DNA of 33,600 nt from Candidatus Altimarinota bacterium. GTDB lineage: Bacteria > Patescibacteriota > Gracilibacteria > BD1-5 > UBA6164. The position numbers were made by a program, and so were the translations under genes. The stretch is from positions 1 to 33,600 of the forward strand of contig JAIUMN010000008.1 of assembly GCA_022565555.1 (NCBI GenBank). Direction: 5' to 3'. The notes under the pieces are model-generated. The model saw only the letters and a list, made by a program, of their open reading frames with translations, was not told where the DNA came from and did no database searches. How positions within the stretch are numbered: the first letter of the stretch is position 1; every line of letters begins with the position of its first letter. Of this stretch, positions 1-8,317 are shown piece by piece.

Positions 1-703
1 CATTGACTCCATTCAGTTCAAGCCACAGACGTGTTGCATTGACCCCAATAATACGCTGAAAGTAGGAAAAGTTTGTTCTGCGAAAATCTTCTATAGTCTT
101 AATATTTCGAGATATTCGAGTTTCAAGTCGTTTCCCAATAAAAGGAATGCTTGAAAGCGGAATTTTTTTAAAAATCTTTATAATCTCCTCTGAGTCAAGA
201 TATATATTCACTCCAAATGGTTTTCTTAACTTAGAAAATATTTTAGCCCTGAGGCGAGTATTTCCTCCTCATATCGTCACAGATATTCCGAGTTTAGAAA
301 GTATTTTTTTCTGAAGAAATAAAGCAAAATCATAAGAAGACATATTGTAATATTCAGGAACTCACGAGACATTACAAAACGCCTCATCAATACTAAAAAC
401 CTCTATTGCTTCACTATAATATGTAAGTATATGCATCAATTTTTCAGAGATTGATGCATAGTATAAAATATCTGGAGGGAAAAAATAACTCTTATCCTTT
501 GGAAGCATCCGTCTTGCTTCCCATACTGGAGTACCTGTTTTTACTCCCAAATACTTCGCGTTATAACTCGCTGCTACGATAATATCTCCTCATACACATA
601 CATATTTATCACGTAGTTCAGGGTGTCTCAATATTTCACATGCAACAAAAAAACTATCACAGTCCACATGAAACCACAGTTGTTTAGAGTATCGGAATTT
701 CAT
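1..703 (-). CDS. Y-family translesion DNA polymerase (DinB/UmuC-like), partial
   Basis: Error-prone polymerase that copies damaged DNA. The reading starts at ATG 703 with an N-terminal WFHVDCDSFF, the first catalytic Asp motif of the Y family, and continues to VFSIDEAF around residue 105, the second catalytic Asp-Glu pair. Next come the palm/thumb and a helix-hairpin-helix-like stretch (LSSIPFIGKRLETRI). The C-terminal little-finger part lies outside the window. Three or more in-frame TGA codons occur where Gly is expected, for example just before GDIIVAASYN and in ISVTIGGGNTR. The start codon touches a 49-bp palindrome (704-752) that probably binds a regulator. Family assignment is sure; I cannot separate DinB from UmuC with the end missing. 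The nearest neighbour is a divergent two-component system. Confidence 0.85.
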
Positions 704-752: not shown

Positions 753-847
753 TGTAAAGTTTTTTCCTCATACACTTCTATTACGCAGAAACTGTATTTT
801 AAATGATAAATCTATATACTGAAAACAATATTTTTTATCAAATAGCT

Positions 848-1528
848 ATGAAAGTACTCGTAATCGAGGATAATGATATCCTGAGAGACAATATCGTGAC
901 CTACTTGGATATCAAGTGATACAAGGCGAAATGACACGCTGACTACCACTGAGCGATGCTTGAGGTAGTGAACTATAAGCCTGACGTGATAATTCTGGAC
1001 CTTGGACTTGGGAGTGAGGAGTGAGATGGGAGAGATATATGTCGTGCTCTGAGAGAAAAGTGAGATAGTACACCAATATTGATACTGACCGCAAGAAGTC
1101 TCACTGAGCAAAAAATCGAGGGACTTAATATTGGAGCTGATGACTATATGGTGAAGCCTTTTGATTATAACGAACTGATCGCACGACTCGAAGCGCTCGT
1201 ACGTCGAAGTATGGGGCAAAAATGACAAATAGTGAGAGTATGAGATATCATCATCGATACTAGTTCTCATCAAGTGAAGCTCTCAGAGAGTGAAGTACGC
1301 CTCTCAAAACTTGAGTACGAACTCTTTCTCTATATGGCGCGTAATATAGGACGAGCTCTCACGAAGCAAGAACTTCTTGAAAAAGTCTGGGGCGAGTATG
1401 ACGCCTTTGAAGAAAGCCGAACCGTAGATATCCATATTGGATATCTACGTAAAAAGATTGGTGCAGAGATTATAGAGACGATGCGCTGAGTTGGATATAT
1501 TATACCTGATACATACCGACATGAATAG
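848..1528 (+). CDS. OmpR/PhoB-family response regulator
   Basis: A 226-residue transcription regulator of a two-component system. The receiver domain starts [11 protein letters not shown] with the acidic pair at residues 8-9; the phosphoacceptor Asp is residue 51 in VIILDLGLG, and the conserved Lys is in [10 protein letters not shown]. The C-terminal winged helix covers about residues 135-226 with [25 protein letters not shown] and the recognition region [15 protein letters not shown]. Seven or more TGA codons are read as Gly, including the one in MRGVGY, a near-invariant Gly of OmpR winged helices. The gene overlaps the downstream kinase start by 8 bases, so the pair is translationally coupled. 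Its target is unknown; autoregulation through the upstream palindrome is possible. Confidence 0.92.
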
Positions 1529-2435
1529 TTTAGAGCTTCTTGAGAAACATCGTCAAAAGATGGGACTCATCCTTGGTCTTATCATCCATATACTGCTCTA
1601 TATCGCTATTATCTGAACACAGAGCATCATCGTGTATTATGAACTGCGGGATATAAGTGATACTATATGGAGAGATACGGTGAGAGCATTGAGCTTCACG
1701 TTTTTGATACTGATCATCGCCACACCTTTTCTCTATAGTATACTTGCTTATCTTAGTTGTAGGGTGATGCACCGCATCTACAAGCCTATCAAGGAAAGCA
1801 TCAGTAATCTCGAGGATTTTGCTGAAAATATTAATCATGAGTTCAAAACAGGTATCTCTGAGATCATCTCAAGCTCAGAGCTAGCACGTGAGACAAAACT
1901 CTATGAAGAAACAAACGAAAAAGTACTCTGATCAGCAAAGAGACTTTCTGATATTCTCACTTCCCTCTCTGTGCTTATATATTTTGTAAATCTCGATTAT
2001 AAAAAGAAAAAAATAAATATTATAGAGTTTCTTGATATGAGTATTGAGGATTTTGAGATACGCTTACAAGAAAAAAATATTGAAATCATAAAAAAATATA
2101 ATCCCAAAGAAAAAATATATGTGTATATAGATAGTGCCCCTCTTCTTCTTTGTTTTCAAAATATACTCAAAAATGCTATTAGATATTCAGAAGTTTGAGG
2201 AAATATTGAGATAATCATAACGAGAATGTATTTTTGTATAAAAGATTATGGAATAGGGATTGCAGCTGAAAATAAGGAAAAAATATTTGAGAGGCACTTC
2301 AGAGAGAGTTATAGTTGAGGGTGAAATTGACTTGGACTTTCGCTTGTAAAAAAAATATGTACTATCTATAATTGGAAAGTAGAAGTTGAGAGTGAAAAAT
2401 GAGAATATAGTGAGTTTCGAGTCTATTTTTGATAA
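1521..2435 (+). CDS. Membrane sensor histidine kinase
   Basis: The partner of the response regulator it overlaps, 304 residues and thus short for the family. Two membrane segments (about residues 14-36 and 53-78) flank a small extracytoplasmic loop of about 20 residues, too small for a classical sensor domain; no HAMP domain is evident. The H box is NINHEFKTG with the phosphoacceptor His at residue 106; the usual Pro after KT is Gly. The ATPase domain has the N box NILKNAIRYS, the G1 box KDYGIGI and the G2 box SYSGGGNGLGLSLVKK. In that G2 box three glycines are TGA codons, which is the best single proof of the genetic code here. It likely senses membrane state or another membrane protein (inference). 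Confidence 0.9.
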
Positions 2436-2456
2436 TATCATACTTTTTTCATACAG

Positions 2457-2490
2457 GCATATTATATATTTAATATGCTTTTATTTTTTA
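2457..2490 (+). terminator. Rho-independent terminator after the two-component operon
   Basis: GCATATTA (2457-2464) pairs with TAATATGC (2471-2478) around a 6-base loop and is followed by a T-rich tract (TTTTATTTTTT). It lies 22 bases after the kinase stop codon. Confidence 0.65.
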
Positions 2491-2504
2491 ACATATATAA
2501 CCAT

Positions 2505-3263
2505 ATGAAAGCAATAAATATACTTATGGGTTCAATACTTTTTCTCAGCGCACTCTGATTTGCGTCTGCACATAATCACATGGAAGCAGAAACTACTACG
2601 ATGGAAAGTAATACTATTGTAGATATTGCAGTAGGAAATGAGGATTTTTCAACTCTTGTAACAGCAGTAGTTGAAGCAGAGCTTGCGGATACACTGAGTT
2701 CAGAAGGGCCATTTACAGTATTTGCTCCACTTAATTCTGCATTTGCAAATCTTCCAGAAGGAACTGTTGAAATGCTTCTTATGGAAGAAAATAGAGAGCT
2801 TCTAAGGTCAATTCTTACTTATCATGTAATTGCTGGAGATATTCGAGCATCAGCACTACAAAAAGGCTTGAGTGTAACGACAGTAGAAGGATGAGAAGTT
2901 CGCTTTGAGATGACCGGAGGAAACTGGTATATAAACTGAGCTCAGATAGTAGCAACTGATATCATAGCTTCTAATGGAATAATACACATTATAGATAATG
3001 TTATTCTTCCACCAGCAAATATGAGCGATATGGAGATGCAAAAAGAAATGCTTGAAGAAATACTAACTTGAGAAGAGATGGGTCTTGTCATGAGCTTCGA
3101 TAGAGCACTTCAAAATCTTCTCTCTGAAAGATCTGAAAGAATACAAGGCATGTTAATAAATAGAGTTCTTTCAACTGTAGATATTGCACTTTCTACAAAA
3201 GAACTTTCTATAAGCCAACAAAACATGCTTACATATATAAAGCTTCATATAGAACTCATGTAG
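2505..3263 (+). CDS. Secreted fasciclin (FAS1) domain protein
   Basis: 252 residues. An N-terminal signal peptide (about residues 1-22, MKAINILMGSILFLSALGFA) predicts export. One FAS1 domain spans about residues 38-165: it begins TIVDIAVGNEDFSTLV, contains the conserved block GPFTVFAPLNSAFANLP and the YHVIAGDI motif, and ends NGIIHIIDNVILPP. After it lies an acidic, Met-rich helix and a second helical region of about 80 residues of unknown role. FAS1 domains mediate adhesion in many bacteria, so a surface adhesion role in an epibiotic or predatory cell is plausible but inferred. It stands alone between two hairpin terminators. Three TGA codons are read as Gly (FASA signal, EGGEV, INGAQ). Confidence 0.88.
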
Positions 3264-3397: not shown

Positions 3398-3814
3398 ATG
3401 CAGTACAAGATTCCTGTACAGATTGAAAATGAAGACCCTATATTTCTTGGGCTCAGCCTAAGACAACTTATGATTCTCATGATAGGATTCTCATTTGCTT
3501 ATCTTATATTTACAAGTCTAGAGCCTAATATTGGTCCTGAAATAGCACTTATTCCAAGTGGAATTGTTGCTATAATAGCTTTACTTATAGCTATTTTTAA
3601 ACAATACGAAATGACTTTTGTACCTTTTGTACTTGCCCTCATACTACTCAACTCGTTCTCAAGGGAGAGAAGATGGGAGCAATGAGTAGACTCATTTCAA
3701 CCAATTGATGTATGATTCCTAGTTACAACCGAGGCAAAAAAGAAAGATTCTATAGACCTCAGAGAAAAAATGGATACAATGCAAGAACTTCAAGAAAAAC
3801 TTAAAAAGATATAA
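3398..3814 (+). CDS. PrgI family membrane protein (type IV secretion-like)
   Basis: 138 residues. It starts MQYKIPVQIENEDPIFLGLS, a typical PrgI opening (short beta stretch, then LGLSLRQL), followed by two hydrophobic helices (about residues 24-42 and 48-80) and a charged C-terminal helix ending QELQEKLKKI. PrgI-family proteins occur next to VirB4/TraC genes in conjugative or type IV secretion loci of Gram-positive bacteria, and widely in CPR genomes. Here the next gene is TraC-like, which supports the call. Two TGA codons (after RRWEQ and in PIDVGF) are read as Gly. It is the first gene of a run that continues to 9227. Its molecular role is not known; an inner-membrane channel or platform part is inferred. 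Confidence 0.8.
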
Positions 3815-3886
3815 TTACTAATATATTTCTGAACTTAGAAAATAAAAAATAGGAATATTTAAAAAGTTGACTCAAATACTTATACT

Positions 3887-4597
3887 ATGCCAGTAAAAAC
3901 ATCAAAAAAAACGAGTCCTGATGGAAGTACACAACGTCATCTTCCCTTTTCTCAAATACGTGAAAATATTATTCTTCTTAAAGATAACTCAGCGCGCATG
4001 GTGCTAAAATGCAGTACAATAAATTTTCTCCTCAAATCAGAAGAAGAGCAAGATGCTATTATTATAAGCTTTCAACGTTTCCTTAATACACTTGATTTTC
4101 CTGTTCAGATTATGGTTCGATCAAATAAACTTGATATCGATGGGTATCTTGAGAAACTCAAAGAAAAAGCGGTAAATCAGAAAAATTCGCTACTCCAAAA
4201 TCAAACATATGAATATATAGAATATCTTAAAAAACTTGTAGAGGTAGCTCAGATTATGAAAAAAGAGTTTTATATTGTAGTACCGTTTGATATGGAGGAT
4301 AATCGCAGTGTAAAAGATACAGGAATATTTTGAGTATTTAAAAAGTTTTGGCAGTCATTTAATAACAGTGATGATATAGTAAAAATACGTGGGCAAATAC
4401 GGAAATTTTCGGATCTTAAAAAATGACTTGCAGGAAGAACTGGAACAGTAAAAACAAGTCTGGAAAGTATCGGTATACGGGCAACTGAGCTCGAAAAATC
4501 AGAGCTTGTAACCCTCTTATCTGACTATTATAATCCAAGTCTTTGAAATCTACAAACTATGAAAAGTGATATTTCTCAATATAATTTAGTTTCATAA
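3887..4597 (+). CDS. TraC-like / VirB4 N-terminal domain protein without an ATPase domain
   Basis: 236 residues. The opening THRHLP-type segment (STQRHLPFSQIRENIILLKD) and the block FLNTLDFPVQIMVRSNKLDI match the N-terminal domain that precedes the ATPase in TraC/VirB4 proteins. The middle LVEVAQIMKKEFYIVVPFD also fits. The protein ends before any Walker A motif, so the ATP-hydrolysing part is missing or encoded elsewhere. Such stand-alone TraC-like proteins paired with PrgI are known from CPR genomes. I infer a cytoplasmic adaptor at the base of a secretion or pilus machine. In-frame TGA codons occur in TGIFGVF, LKKGLAG and SLGNLQ. The next gene starts 8 bases downstream. Confidence 0.72.
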
Positions 4598-4605
4598 TAT
4601 ATATT

Positions 4606-4968
4606 ATGCGGATATTTTTATATATATTTCTCTGATATTTAAGTATAGTACAAACTTATGCCTTAAGTATTGATATACAAGGTAATAGTAATAACATACT
4701 AGGTATTGATAATACAAGACTTCGGGAATGACGAGTTGGACTGAGTGATATTCCTCTCGCGATTCGTAATGCTATAGATTTTTTTATGGGAATAGCTGCA
4801 ACAGTTGCGGTAATATTTATTGTTATTTGAGCCTACAAGATACTCTTTGGATCACTTCAACAAGATAAAACAAAGTGACGTGATACTATTATTGCAGCGC
4901 TTGGAGGGTTTGCCCTTGCCGCTCTTTCTTGGATGATTATTCGGCTGATAATTTCTAACTTTTCATAA
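4606..4968 (+). CDS. VirB2/TrbC-pilin-like small membrane protein
   Basis: 120 residues. A signal peptide (about residues 1-19, ending VQTYA) is followed by a short polar part and two hydrophobic helices (about 54-76 IAATVAVIFIVIGAYKILFG and 91-117). A positively charged turn (QQDKTKGRDT) lies between them. This arrangement is typical of VirB2-type pilins and of the CPR pilin-like proteins linked to type IV secretion genes. The neighbours PrgI and TraC-like fit this. No sequence motif proves polymerisation, so the assignment rests on topology and context. TGA codons read as Gly include positions in the signal peptide (FLGYLS) and the first helix (VIGAYK). Confidence 0.6.
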
Positions 4969-4969
4969 C

Positions 4970-5437
4970 ATGTCAAACTCAGAAATGTATTATACATGGA
5001 ACTTTCAGGATACAAAACATCGTAGTCCTATGTGGTATATTATAGCACTCTCACTTGCATGAGGACTCATAATATTTTGATTTCTCTCAAAGCAATATGG
5101 AATGAGTATTGTGCTATTACTTATTATTGGATTATATTTCTTTTTAGAAAATAATACTGATGATGAAGTATCCGTTCAAATAACAAATCTTGGGATAAAT
5201 GTACAAGGAAGCTTTTATGATTATAGTCGTATACAATCATTCCGATTTATATATGATGGAGGAGAGGCTATATATTTGAGAATAAATATAAAAAAGTCAT
5301 GAATAAGTAGCATGAATATTCGTGTAGATAATGATATAGTAGCAAATATACGTCCAATACTTGTCCAATATATTGAAGAAGATGCAAAGTCAGAAATTAC
5401 TCTTCTTGAAAAGATTATCCATACACTCAAACTCTAA
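4970..5437 (+). CDS. Membrane protein with two helices and a PH-like cytoplasmic tail, unknown function
   Basis: 155 residues, starting one base after the stop of the pilin-like gene. After a polar N-terminus there are two adjacent hydrophobic segments (about 22-37 and 43-57) that form a hairpin. The C-terminal 95 residues are a beta-rich domain (VSVQITNLGINVQGSFYDY, then SFRFIYDGGEAIYLRINI) followed by a helix. The pattern resembles bacterial PH-like domain proteins, but I recognise no family with certainty. Three TGA codons are read as Gly. Tight spacing suggests co-function with the pilin and PrgI genes. Confidence 0.7.
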
Positions 5438-5457: not shown

Positions 5458-5880
5458 ATGAAAATATTATCAAGCATACTTTGAAATGCACTTATACTCT
5501 ATCTTATCACTTTTCTTCTTGCATGAAATCCTGAGAGAGCAATTAGTGATGGAGTACTTCTAGGGTGTAGTAACTGTGATTACACTTCCCTAGAAGCACT
5601 AAAGACATATGTACTTGGAGGAATAGTACTCTGAATTATTAATATTACTATACGTCCTATTTTGCGTATATTAAGCCTTCCTTTCTTCTTTTTATTTTTC
5701 TGACTACTCAGCCTTGTGATAAATGGAGTCATACTCTATCTCTTTTCCTATATACTCAATGAGATACTGATTATTCCTTGAGTCGGTTATACAATAGTAG
5801 GAACTATTAATTTCATAATTGCTGTTGCAATTTTTACTTTTTTCAATACACTCTTTTCGTTTTTACTTTTTAAACGTTAA
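5458..5880 (+). CDS. Phage holin family 4 (PF04020-type) membrane protein
   Basis: 140 residues with four hydrophobic helices. The block NITIRPILRILSLPFFFLFF followed by GLLSLVINGVILYLFSYI is characteristic of the Phage_holin_4_2 family, which despite its name is common in bacterial chromosomes and has no proven lytic role there. A Cys-containing insert (LLGCSNCDYTS) lies between helices 1 and 2. Six TGA codons are read as Gly, all in or next to membrane helices. No phage genes lie nearby, so it is not evidence of a prophage. The secG start follows 2 bases after its stop. Confidence 0.78.
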
Positions 5881-5882
5881 AA

Positions 5883-6101
5883 ATGTACTCTCTTCTTTTA
5901 AATTTTCAGATAATTATCTGTATACTTCTTATTGCTATCGTTCTTATTCAAAACAAAAGTGTAAGCCTGAACCTTACAAGTATGAGTTGATCCGCAGCAT
6001 CTAACACTAAAAGATGACCTGAAAAAGTACTTCACAATGGAACTATTGTAATCTGAACTCTCTTTATCCTTAATTCTGTACTTCTTTTCATACTTGCGTA
6101 A
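5883..6101 (+). CDS. secG: Preprotein translocase subunit SecG
   Basis: 72 residues with two membrane helices. The first ends in IAIVLIQNKS, like the VLLQ motif of SecG. The loop SGSAASNTKRGPEKVLH corresponds to the conserved RRG-E-K segment, and the second helix is TIVIGTLFILNSVLLFILA. SecG assists SecYE-dependent export. Standard translation would give only a fragment because three TGA codons (SGS, RGP, IGT) are Gly. It sits between a holin-like gene and a solute-binding protein gene, within the same plus-strand run. Short length and motif agree with the family. Confidence 0.8.
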
Positions 6102-6136
6102 GGTATATCATAGTATTACCCCCTTTTTTTCTTTAC

Positions 6137-8317
6137 ATGAATTATCATATACTTCATAAGTTTAAAAAATACCTATTACTTCTCAGTATTATACTTTTTT
6201 TTCTCACTTGAAGTCATCTCTCATACACCTATCTCACACATGATGCTGATTTTGAAGCAATCCCAGGTGGTACTATTTCTGAGGCTATTGTATGAAGCTT
6301 TCCTCACTTCAATCCACTCCTTCCATCAAGTGATCATAATAGCTATATTAATGGTCTCTTATATCGATCACTCTTAAATTATGATCAGGAAAGCAAAAGA
6401 TTTACTTCAGATATTGCAAGTTGTAATCTTGAAAAACTTTGAAGTATAGAGTGTGTTCTTGAGGAAAATATCCGCTGGTCTAATGGTCAAAATATTACAG
6501 CTGATGATATAATCGCAACCTATGATATAATCAGACAAACATGAGTTCATCCCCTCTACAGCTCACTTCTTGAAAACGTAAGTATAAGGAAAAATGGAAA
6601 TGTTATTAGCTTTACGACTTGAACTCGAGATATCAATATTCTTTCTCTATTCTTACAGCCAATTCTTCCAAAAAGTATTGTGGATACGCTTAATAGCGAA
6701 ACAGTTGAATGAAAACTCTCAGATGTAAATGGTGTGTTTTCTTGAATGTTTACTGTATCCAATATTATCATAGATGAAACAACTGGAGTATCACGCATCA
6801 CTCTTGAACGTAATAATAATTATTCTCAAAATCCTACCTATATTGAATATCTTATCATCAATCTGTTCCGTGATGAAAATCATCTCTTACAAAACAGAAG
6901 TAGTTCATTTAATATAAAATATGACCGAAATTGAATTATAGCAAACTCTATACCAAGACTACAGTCTCATCACTTTATAGTTCCGCAATTTACTTCACTT
7001 TTTTATAATACCCAAAATATTGATTTACAACTAAGGAGTCATCTTAATACATTAATAAAACGAGAAGGTCTTGTCAGCTGACTTTGAAATACGAAAGTTG
7101 AGGCAATATATAATCCATTTTTTAGTGAAAGACTTATAGAAAAACAACAAGAAGATAACTTTTCTTTTGAGTCATACTTAAATTCAAGATGATATTATAG
7201 TAAAAATGAACTCCTTAGACAGCTTGATGCAAAGCAAAAAATCACCCAAGAATCAGAGCTTTTCGCAGATAGTGAAGCTCAGGATACAAGACCATTACAA
7301 GAAGAACTCACTATCGTAAGAAGTCCAACAACACAAAAATATAACTTTGTAAACTCAGATAATATCCTTATAGAATGATCAGTTCCAGCTGGTGTGAGTG
7401 CAGTATATGTAAATGATTATAGACTTCAATGATTCTCAGAAGGTGATAGAGTATTTTTTTATAGACTTCTTGGAAATTTTGATTCAATCACTGATGGTGA
7501 AAATAAATATGATATATATTTTGAAATAAATGGGGAGAGGGCGCTCCAAGAAACTTTTTTTTACTACCTTATAGAAGACGAGGAGGAGCTTGATGATTTT
7601 AGAAATAATTTCTTCCGACAAGAAGGTCAAAGCACCCCGAATCAGAATACACAACTTGATGATTTATTAGAAATACAGATAAGTCGTGAAGAAATCAATA
7701 ATCTTCCTGCAAATAGGTATTATACTCCGTCATGAGAAGTATTTCGCTTAAAGCTTACTTCTGTACAAACTGATATACTTCTTACCGAAGCCCTACAAAT
7801 AGTGAGATGAAAACTAGAAGATAATTGAATAGAGCTTGAAATAGAAAGTATGAGCTTAGGGGAGCTTACAAATGCATTACGAAACGAAAGTGTAGAATAT
7901 GATATGATTCTTTTAGGTATAGATGTATGATATTTTAGTGGAAATATATTTCCTTACTTTCACTCATCACAAGTGGAAAATGGGTATAATTTATCAAAGT
8001 TTTCTAAACTATGACTTGATATACTTCTTGAAGAACTTCGATCAGAAATACTTACACGAAGTGAAGAAGAAGAGCTACAAGAGAAGATACTCAGCATCCT
8101 TGAAGAGGAGCAACTTATGAAAACACTTTATAGTAATAAATACAAACTTCTTATAGATAGAAATATACGTAGAGAAGAGCTTCCAAAAAAATTCTCTAAC
8201 ACGCAATCGAGACAATTTATATTTAAGGATATGTATTTCAACGAATCACAAATGATTCAGTGGGATAATAAAAGTATAGTAGGTGGGTTACGTTTTATAA
8301 TTTCGAAACTTTTCTAA
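6137..8317 (+). CDS. Peptide/solute-binding protein (SBP family 5) with inserted Ig-like domain
   Basis: 726 residues, larger than typical DppA/OppA (about 500-550). A signal-anchor helix is at about residues 13-27. The SBP_bac_5 N-lobe follows with GGTISEAIVGSFPHFNPLLP, LLYRSLLNYD and ENIRWSNGQNITADDIIATY, all hallmark segments. The second lobe resumes near residue 527 (YTPSGEVFRLKLTSV) and includes DMILLGIDVGYF. Between them, about residues 375-500, lies an inserted beta-sandwich-like segment (ILIEGSVPAGVSAVYVN, then ENKYDIYFEINGE) like the Ig-like modules of CPR surface proteins, then an acidic linker. No permease or ATPase gene of an ABC importer lies next to it; the following gene encodes a polytopic membrane protein. 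It may bind peptides or act as a surface receptor. Confidence 0.82.

What the first reader, a model, noticed from the sequence alone, without database searches (positions are those of the whole stretch)
3398..5437. Minimal PrgI - TraC-N - VirB2-like - 2-TM module without an ATPase
Four tightly linked small genes look like core pieces of a type IV secretion or pilus machine, yet the VirB4 ATPase domain is absent from the TraC-like protein and no VirD4, relaxase or VirB6 is near. It is followed by SecG and a surface binding protein. It could be a stripped-down secretion or attachment system for epibiotic life, powered by an ATPase encoded elsewhere.
Basis: partly seen in the sequence, partly recalled or inferred. 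Interest (0 to 1): 0.55.

Follow-up and report, generated by a model that had tools for sequence, protein, structure and literature searches.

The report
Secretion-system genes scattered across the genome
Four neighbouring genes in a host-dependent ultrasmall bacterium encode real parts of a known molecular injection and pilus machine, and the motor that seemed to be missing is encoded elsewhere in the same genome, apparently as two separate protein chains.

Summary
Read with genetic code 25 (TGA=Gly), window 3398-5437 encodes PrgI (VirB3-like), a TrsD protein (N-terminal part of VirB4), a PF18895 type IV secretion pilin and a two-helix membrane protein. The order is conserved in the organism's family (Ca. 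Gracilibacteria): PrgI beside TrsD in 47 of 47 loci, pilin in 46, the fourth gene in 43.

It is neither minimal nor motorless. The genome also encodes VirB4, at least two VirD4-like ATPases and a candidate VirB6 on other contigs; 132 of 135 genomes with TrsD have VirB4. TrsD and VirB4 cover different stretches of single-chain VirB4 profiles, and the TrsD model resembles solved VirB4. So the "TraC protein without an ATPase" is best read as one chain of a two-chain VirB4 whose genes have drifted apart.

[quoted passage not shown] Details I did not meet in print: the two-chain reading, a candidate VirB6 in 75 of 79 genomes, and a pilin paired with a predicted PH-fold protein in 28 of 28 sister-family loci. 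Function is inferred.

The parts
3398..3814 (+). PrgI / VirB3-like membrane protein, 138 aa (code 25)
   Evidence: PF12666 43.1 bits over cut-off 27; beside TrsD in 47 of 47 family loci and found at 79 of 80 wider TrsD loci
3887..4597 (+). TrsD protein, 236 aa: read here as the N-terminal lobe of VirB4 on a separate chain
   Evidence: NF045975 positions 92-233 of 894, E 1.9e-13; 37 of 37 aligned homologues match it; model resembles R388 TrwK/VirB4
4606..4968 (+). VirB2-like T4SS pilin, 120 aa
   Evidence: PF18895 41.7 bits over cut-off 26.6; downstream of TrsD in 46 of 47 family loci
4970..5437 (+). Gene D: 155 aa, predicted PH-like domain with a two-helix membrane hairpin after its first strand
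   Evidence: 43 of 47 family loci; AlphaFold2 mean pLDDT 85.1; VIA Z up to 10.7 to PH-fold chains; found in 112 of 147 genomes; directly after a pilin in 28 of 28 sister-family loci

Best explanation
The four genes are one of at least four unlinked loci of the Patescibacteria type IV secretion system in a code-25 Gracilibacterium. SHOWN by sequence: PrgI (VirB3), TrsD and a VirB2-type pilin here; VirB4 preceded by a SpoIIE-type phosphatase across the C41/C33 contig break; a VirD4-like ATPase followed by a contig-cut pilin-repeat protein on C26, and another VirD4-like ATPase on C32; a polytopic VirB6-like candidate on C3. SHOWN by profile mapping: TrsD and VirB4 correspond to different stretches of single-chain VirB4. 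INFERRED: TrsD binds PrgI in the membrane, as the VirB4 N-terminal domain contacts VirB3 in solved systems; the VirB4 chain docks on TrsD to make a two-chain motor; it draws the pilin from the membrane into a pilus or channel at a VirB6 platform; VirD4-like ATPases feed substrates. INFERRED: gene D, a membrane-hairpin PH protein, is a dedicated cytoplasmic-side partner of that pilin (insertion, storage or handover). The likely role is host contact and protein delivery or nutrient capture rather than plasmid conjugation.
For: Curated profile hits. Full-length VirB4 from five genomes maps to CD1110-family VirB4 (752 positions) from 173-186 to 732-734, all over the cut-off (347-377 bits against 325); the window's TrsD maps to 3-129. 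On NF045975 the three TrsD proteins measured end at 233-236 and the five VirB4 proteins start at 233-292; in G140 the two touch at 233. hhalign finds no TrsD-like part in these VirB4 proteins (probability 0.3%). A Pontibacillus plasmid has PrgI-like, TrsD (hhalign 99.8%) and a 621-aa VirB4 side by side; pNP40 and a Brevibacillus plasmid have PrgI followed by one 795-804 aa VirB4. The TrsD model's 14 best Foldseek rows are all R388 T4SS entries containing TrwK/VirB4 (best E 1.8e-3, none at 0.001); VIA Z 11.2 over 182 residues, next unrelated fold 5.9. Co-occurrence 132 of 135. VirB4 N-terminal domains contact VirB3 (PMC12857230, passages).
Against: No interaction was measured or modelled as a complex. 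The TrsD model is moderate (mean pLDDT 73.8, pTM 0.61), and its matched TrwK range (10..409) is wider than the profile-mapped N-terminal stretch. Only 10 of 37 TrsD proteins match the CD1110 profile at E 0.01, though all 37 match NF045975. Direct similarity of TrsD to the N-termini of single-chain VirB4 is marginal: Brevibacillus E 3e-6, pFI430 0.0065, pNP40 0.2 in a search of nine sequences, and hhalign to pNP40 is not significant. A PDB sequence search with TrsD found nothing relevant. Three genomes have TrsD without a VirB4 match, one of them listed as 100% complete (G091), and ten have VirB4 without a TrsD match. The VirB6 call is weak.
Confidence: 0.82

Rival explanations
1. TrsD is an accessory paralogue of the VirB4 N-terminal domain (a free-standing adaptor), not a missing piece of the enzyme; VirB4 works as a shortened single chain.
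For: TrsD resembles VirB4 only remotely; 10 of 147 genomes have VirB4 but no TrsD match. In solved systems VirB4 N-terminal domains also make dimer and VirB8 contacts (PMC12857230, passages), so a free copy could serve a second ring.
Against: The VirB4 chain lacks the matching profile region: about 50 residues precede the mapped part in a same-genus protein, and at most about 80 precede the C33 piece in the own genome; no TrsD-like part is found in VirB4. PrgI-TrsD-VirB4 are adjacent in L283, L284 (Abawacabacteria), L285 (Magasanikbacteria) and Pontibacillus.
Confidence: 0.25
2. Pilus or adhesion organelle only: the parts build an attachment pilus and no cargo is delivered.
For: PF18895 pilin matches are numerous (12 in the own genome); no PF03432 relaxase in the genome.
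Against: VirD4-like proteins in 79 of 79 relatives and a VirB6-like candidate in 75 of 79 point to translocation; but VirD4-like genes may serve elsewhere, as PMC12102498 notes for Southlakia.
Confidence: 0.2
3. Conjugation or DNA uptake machine like Ced/Ted of Archaea.
For: VirB4 and one VirD4-like chain also hit CedB/CedD profiles, far below the cut-offs; T4SS genes of class ABY1 lie near competence genes (PMC12102498).
Against: The best matches are conjugative VirB4 of the CD1110 family; 78 of 79 genomes lack a PF03432 relaxase match (other relaxase families untested); comEC is not essential in Southlakia (PMC12102498).
Confidence: 0.12
4. Decaying remnant of a mobile element.
For: Parts are scattered and VirB4 is not adjacent.
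Against: Open reading frames and fixed gene order in all 47 family genomes with TrsD, from 19 of 20 genera; TrsD and VirB4 mostly single-copy through the class.
Confidence: 0.02

Closest known systems
[quoted passage not shown] PMC12102498)
   Same: Monoderm-type VirB4, TrsD, PrgI/VirB3, VirB2-like PF18895 pilins, VirD4-like proteins mostly away from virB4, relaxases rare; the paper already reports TrsD and PrgI away from virB4 in class Gracilibacteria.
   Different: Here pilin and gene D stand in one row with the PrgI-TrsD pair; the paper reports VirB6 homologues absent in Gracilibacteria, while a candidate is found here in 75 of 79 genomes.
Essential T4SS of Southlakia epibionticum (SEML1_0006-0019; PMC10633639, passages)
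   Same: Same class of machine, with essential pilins and no recognised relaxase.
   Different: One gene cluster there; at least four loci here.
Pontibacillus sp. ALD_SL1 plasmid locus (and, from recall, TrsC-TrsD-TrsE of pGO1-type plasmids)
   Same: PrgI-like, TrsD and a short VirB4 as three genes (Pontibacillus).
   Different: The three genes are adjacent; here VirB4 lies elsewhere.
CD1110-family single-chain VirB4 (Lactococcus pNP40, pFI430)
   Same: PrgI-family gene directly upstream in pNP40; same ATPase family.
   Different: N-terminal part and ATPase are one 795-796 aa protein.
R388 TrwK/VirB4 with TrwM/VirB3
   Same: The TrsD model resembles VirB4; PrgI is the VirB3 counterpart.
   Different: Gram-negative system; one-chain VirB4.

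Membership tests
Patescibacteria type IV secretion system (MPF_FATA-derived) | VirB4 ATPase of the monoderm (CD1110-like) type in the genome | tested here: met
   P0005 scores 332.6 bits against cut-off 325 although cut by the contig end; VirB4 in 142 of 147 relatives
Patescibacteria type IV secretion system (MPF_FATA-derived) | VirB4 inside the monophyletic Patescibacteria clade | not tested
   no tree was built
Patescibacteria type IV secretion system (MPF_FATA-derived) | TrsD homologue | tested here: met
   NF041427 E 3e-4 (below its whole-protein cut-off); 28 of 37 homologues match it, 37 of 37 match NF045975
Patescibacteria type IV secretion system (MPF_FATA-derived) | PrgI/VirB3 homologue | tested here: met
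   PF12666 over cut-off
Patescibacteria type IV secretion system (MPF_FATA-derived) | VirB2-like pilin | tested here: met
   PF18895 over cut-off
Patescibacteria type IV secretion system (MPF_FATA-derived) | VirB6-like polytopic protein | tested here: inconclusive
   own candidate L205:5476-7755 has no VirB6 hit in Pfam or NCBIfam; a relative passes PF04610 (26.8 against 25.9 bits), 1 of 13 aligned members hits PF04610, hhalign to seven PF04610-positive proteins 41%
Conjugative (DNA-transfer) system | relaxase in the genome | tested here: inconclusive
   PF03432: none in the own genome, 1 of 79 genomes; other relaxase families were not searched
Conjugative (DNA-transfer) system | VirD4-type coupling protein | tested here: met
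   own C26 and C32, 79 of 79 genomes; PF02534 48.9 bits and PF10412 37.8 bits, both over cut-off
VirB8 (for gene D) | NTF2-like extracytoplasmic domain | tested here: inconclusive
   the model matches PH-fold chains; absence of NTF2-like chains from the rows excludes nothing
VirB4 (for TrsD) | ATPase domain | tested here: not met
   no ATPase profile in TrsD; it is filed as the separate N-terminal chain, not as VirB4

The most novel reading that the evidence does not exclude
Gracilibacteria run a two-chain VirB4 motor assembled from proteins encoded at unlinked loci: a PrgI-TrsD membrane anchor and a separate ATPase chain whose gene travels with a SpoIIE-type phosphatase. A new small class of pilin partner (hairpin-PH protein D, directly behind one pilin in this order) does a job that VirB8 or other factors do elsewhere. 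Separate loci would allow the anchor and pilin to be made at a different time from the motor.
Probability: 0.35. Interest if true: 0.55.

Novelty: new member of a known kind. Interest (0 to 1): 0.34.

Why it matters
T4SS genes are essential for growth of the one Patescibacterium tested by transposon sequencing (PMC10633639, passages), yet Gracilibacteria looked incomplete in the published survey. Showing where the other parts are, and that TrsD and VirB4 look like two chains of one motor, makes the machine testable in this lineage. It also gives TrsD, to which PMC12102498 says no function has been assigned, a concrete hypothesis: it is the VirB3-binding lobe of VirB4.

Tried and rejected
Reading with code 11 breaks the genes of the module; code 25 fits (a same-genus locus has 18% of its bases in ORFs over 100 aa with code 11 and 90% with code 25; PMC11452946 passages).

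VirB8 for gene D: no support; the model is PH-like. Sequence search of TrsD against solved structures found nothing relevant, so the VirB4 likeness rests on NCBIfam profiles and the fold search. PF04610 alone misses VirB6 in the own genome; the candidate came through a relative. Of the five family-f1 PF04610 hits, two (G043 L144, G036 L147) fall in short three-helix proteins beside what look like pilus genes and were not used. A PDB sequence search with the VirB6 alignment gave only chance-like matches. Gene D beside a pilin outside the order: 0 of 32 loci with my pilin profile, which may be insensitive there; one of the 32 (L344) has no upstream sequence to test. VirB4 next to TrsD as a general rule: rejected, 3 of 80 loci (two of the 80, L241 and L244, end within 160 bases after TrsD) and 2 of the 132 genomes with both, the latter read by eye from the coordinates. 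My ORF picker chose wrong strands at times; counts were redone on six-frame ORFs. The picker also set the wrong code for some loci, which blurs a few ORF ends there.

What the counts leave out: one search used all 47 TrsD loci of the own family (G013, 64% complete, has no TrsD match); 30 of them are only about 3.7 kb or less, so SecG and later genes are lower bounds. One search used 60 of the 65 genomes outside f1 that have gene D: all 28 of the sister families f2/f3 and 32 of 37 others (G086, G092, G122, G137, G144 not fetched). Genomes searched were 147 for TrsD, VirB4, PF04610 and gene D, 79 for VirD4-like, VirB6-like and PF03432, and 60 for PF18895. The lists are cut short.

Full report
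WHAT IS THERE. The window is contig C8 (33,600 bases) of a 1.02 Mb, 49-contig assembly. It reads in genetic code 25. The nearest named relatives are titled Candidatus Gracilibacteria; PMC11452946 (passages) states that this lineage uses code 25. Four ORFs fill 3398-5437 on the plus strand: PrgI (138 aa), TrsD-like (236 aa), T4SS pilin (120 aa) and gene D (155 aa), with gaps of 72, 8 and 1 bases. Pfam gives PrgI 43.1 bits and T4SS_pilin 41.7 bits, both over the cut-off; gene D is only weakly DUF5673, though 17 of 30 aligned members match it at E 0.01. NCBIfam gives the second gene as the N-terminal part of VirB4_plasma (E 1.9e-13) and as TrsD (E 3e-4). No VirB4, VirD4-like or VirB6-like protein is found among the window's ORFs.

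CONSERVATION. TrsD was sought in 147 genomes: 135 have it. VirB4 was sought in the same set: 142 have it. From those two tables 132 have both, 3 TrsD only (G001, G031, G091), 10 VirB4 only and 2 neither. In the own family (47 genomes with TrsD, 19 of 20 genera, all examined) PrgI lies beside TrsD in 47, the pilin in 46, gene D in 43, the holin-like gene in 35 and SecG in 33; the last two are lower bounds because many loci were short. A scan of named genomes kept the best 80 loci: PrgI in 79, VirB4 next to TrsD in 3 (L283 titled Ca. Gracilibacteria, L284 Ca. Abawacabacteria, L285 Ca. Magasanikbacteria), a pilin in 23 (20 of them right behind TrsD), D in 20. So PrgI-TrsD is a fixed pair and VirB4 has usually left it.

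THE MISSING ATPASE. VirB4 is on contig C33, cut by its start. The end of contig C41 carries a SpoIIE-type phosphatase gene followed by a reading frame that ends in the same fifteen residues with which C33 begins, so at most about 80 residues precede the C33 piece and there is no room for a TrsD-like lobe.

TWO CHAINS. Full-length VirB4 from five genomes matches the CD1110 profile (752 positions) from 173-186 to 732-734, all over the curated cut-off. The window's TrsD matches positions 3-129. On NF045975 (894 positions) TrsD matches 92-233 (own), 99-236 (G107) and 92-233 (G140), and VirB4 runs from 292 (same genus), 274 (G107) and 233 (G140) to 892-893. Profile comparison finds no TrsD-like part in these VirB4 proteins. 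In plasmids of Bacillota both forms exist. Pontibacillus has a PrgI-like protein (116 aa), TrsD (274 aa, hhalign 99.8%) and VirB4 (621 aa, from profile position 172) side by side. pNP40 and a Brevibacillus plasmid have an annotated PrgI followed by a single VirB4 of 795 and 804 aa; pFI430 has a 796-aa VirB4 behind a 117-aa protein that my PrgI profile does not match. The pNP40 and pFI430 proteins cover the CD1110 profile from position 1-2 to 751. Direct similarity of TrsD to the N-termini of the single-chain proteins is marginal: Brevibacillus E 3e-6, pFI430 0.0065, pNP40 0.2 in a search of nine sequences, hhalign to pNP40 not significant. The predicted TrsD structure (mean pLDDT 73.8) has as its 14 best Foldseek rows only R388 entries that contain TrwK/VirB4 (best E 1.8e-3, none at 0.001); VIA gives Z 11.2, rmsd 3.9, 182 residues, against 5.9 for the next unrelated fold. 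That those chains are TrwK/VirB4 is taken from entry titles and chain length. PMC12857230 (passages) says VirB4 N-terminal domains contact VirB3 and VirB8. [quoted passage not shown]

OTHER PARTS. VirD4-like ATPases: own C26 (889 aa frame) and C32 (814 aa frame) among six matching pieces, and 79 of 79 genomes, with Pfam T4SS-DNA_transf and TrwB_AAD_bind over cut-off. In G024 the main one is followed by two proteins with three PF18895 stretches each and then a pilin; the own C26 gene is followed by a contig-cut protein that matches the first of these (E 2e-40). VirB6: PF04610 matches 15 of 147 genomes and not the own one. A 724-aa protein from G028 that passes the cut-off finds relatives in 75 of 79 genomes, 53 of 53 of good quality, own C3 44030-45655, beside a gatB-like gene (named from recall) in four of the five loci read: own, G024, G028 and G044, not G008. 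Its link to VirB6 is modest: 1 of 13 members hits PF04610 (E 1.8e-4), and hhalign with seven PF04610-positive proteins gives 41%, E 2.8e-4, over 47 columns. Relaxase PF03432: 1 of 79 genomes, not the own.

GENE D. The AlphaFold2 model (mean pLDDT 85.1) has a strand, a two-helix hairpin and then the remaining strands and a helix. Foldseek gives no match at E 0.001 but PH and FERM domains on top; VIA Z is up to 10.7 against PH-fold chains. A shared fold shows no function. It occurs in 112 of 147 genomes, with one match in 110 of them. In 28 of 28 sister-family genomes with D a pilin is directly upstream, without PrgI or TrsD in the fetched 1.9-3.6 kb; in 32 loci of other families none is found. 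So the module of this window joins two pairs, PrgI-TrsD and pilin-D, and among the families examined they are joined only in the own one.

HOW IT MOST LIKELY WORKS. Shown: presence, order and co-occurrence of parts; complementary profile coverage. Inferred: TrsD on PrgI forms the membrane seat of the VirB4 motor; the motor moves pilin into a filament or channel at the VirB6-like platform; D assists this pilin at the membrane; VirD4-like ATPases supply cargo. The homologous system of Southlakia is essential for epibiotic growth, and its authors suggest that it may export proteins or serve another purpose (PMC10633639, passages).

STANDING. This is a member of the published Patescibacteria T4SS. 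That paper already reports that TrsD and PrgI of class Gracilibacteria lie away from virB4 and that VirB6 is absent there, perhaps through divergence. I did not meet the two-chain reading, the VirB6 candidate or the pilin-D pair in the papers found by the searches. Of those I read PMC12102498 at length and passages of PMC12857230, PMC10633639 and PMC11452946; the rest I saw only in listings.

Noticed in passing
G000:C41 6558-7769 (L297:979-2190); L034-L062: A SpoIIE-type phosphatase gene lies directly upstream of virB4 in 24 of 29 fetched loci of families f1/f2 (27 of 32 with three further genomes), in none of 25 loci of other families, and in the own genome. A possible regulator of the motor.
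   Followed up: partly
L186:10387-12717; L180:10047-10550: Behind the main VirD4-like gene come proteins built of three T4SS_pilin-like stretches each, then a single pilin: perhaps a membrane platform made of fused pilin hairpins.
   Followed up: partly
L182:6432-6926 (own C15): A PF18895-matching protein sits among what look like type IV pilus genes (judged by eye from sequence and helix counts).
   Followed up: no
L184:6629-8225 (own C19): A row of four small three-helix proteins, at least one matching PF18895: looks like a pilin array as described for other Patescibacteria.
   Followed up: no
window 5458-8317: A Phage_holin_4_2-type gene follows the module in 35 of 47 family loci, SecG in 33 of 47, and an SBP_bac_5 gene in 9 of the 17 longer loci.
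   Followed up: partly
window 803-3263: A response-regulator-like protein, a histidine kinase and a fasciclin-domain protein lie just upstream of the module.
   Followed up: no
G040:C9, C1, C16 (L292, L293): One relative has two PF03432 relaxases and a second VirB4-like match in an 848-aa frame without TGA codons: a mobile element or contamination.
   Followed up: no
L326-L358: Outside the order, seven of eight gene D loci looked at have a roughly 500-aa protein directly behind D.
   Followed up: partly
L083, L103 and other f2 loci: Several sister-family genomes gain ORF length when read in code 25 yet have few or no TGA codons inside the T4SS genes.
   Followed up: no
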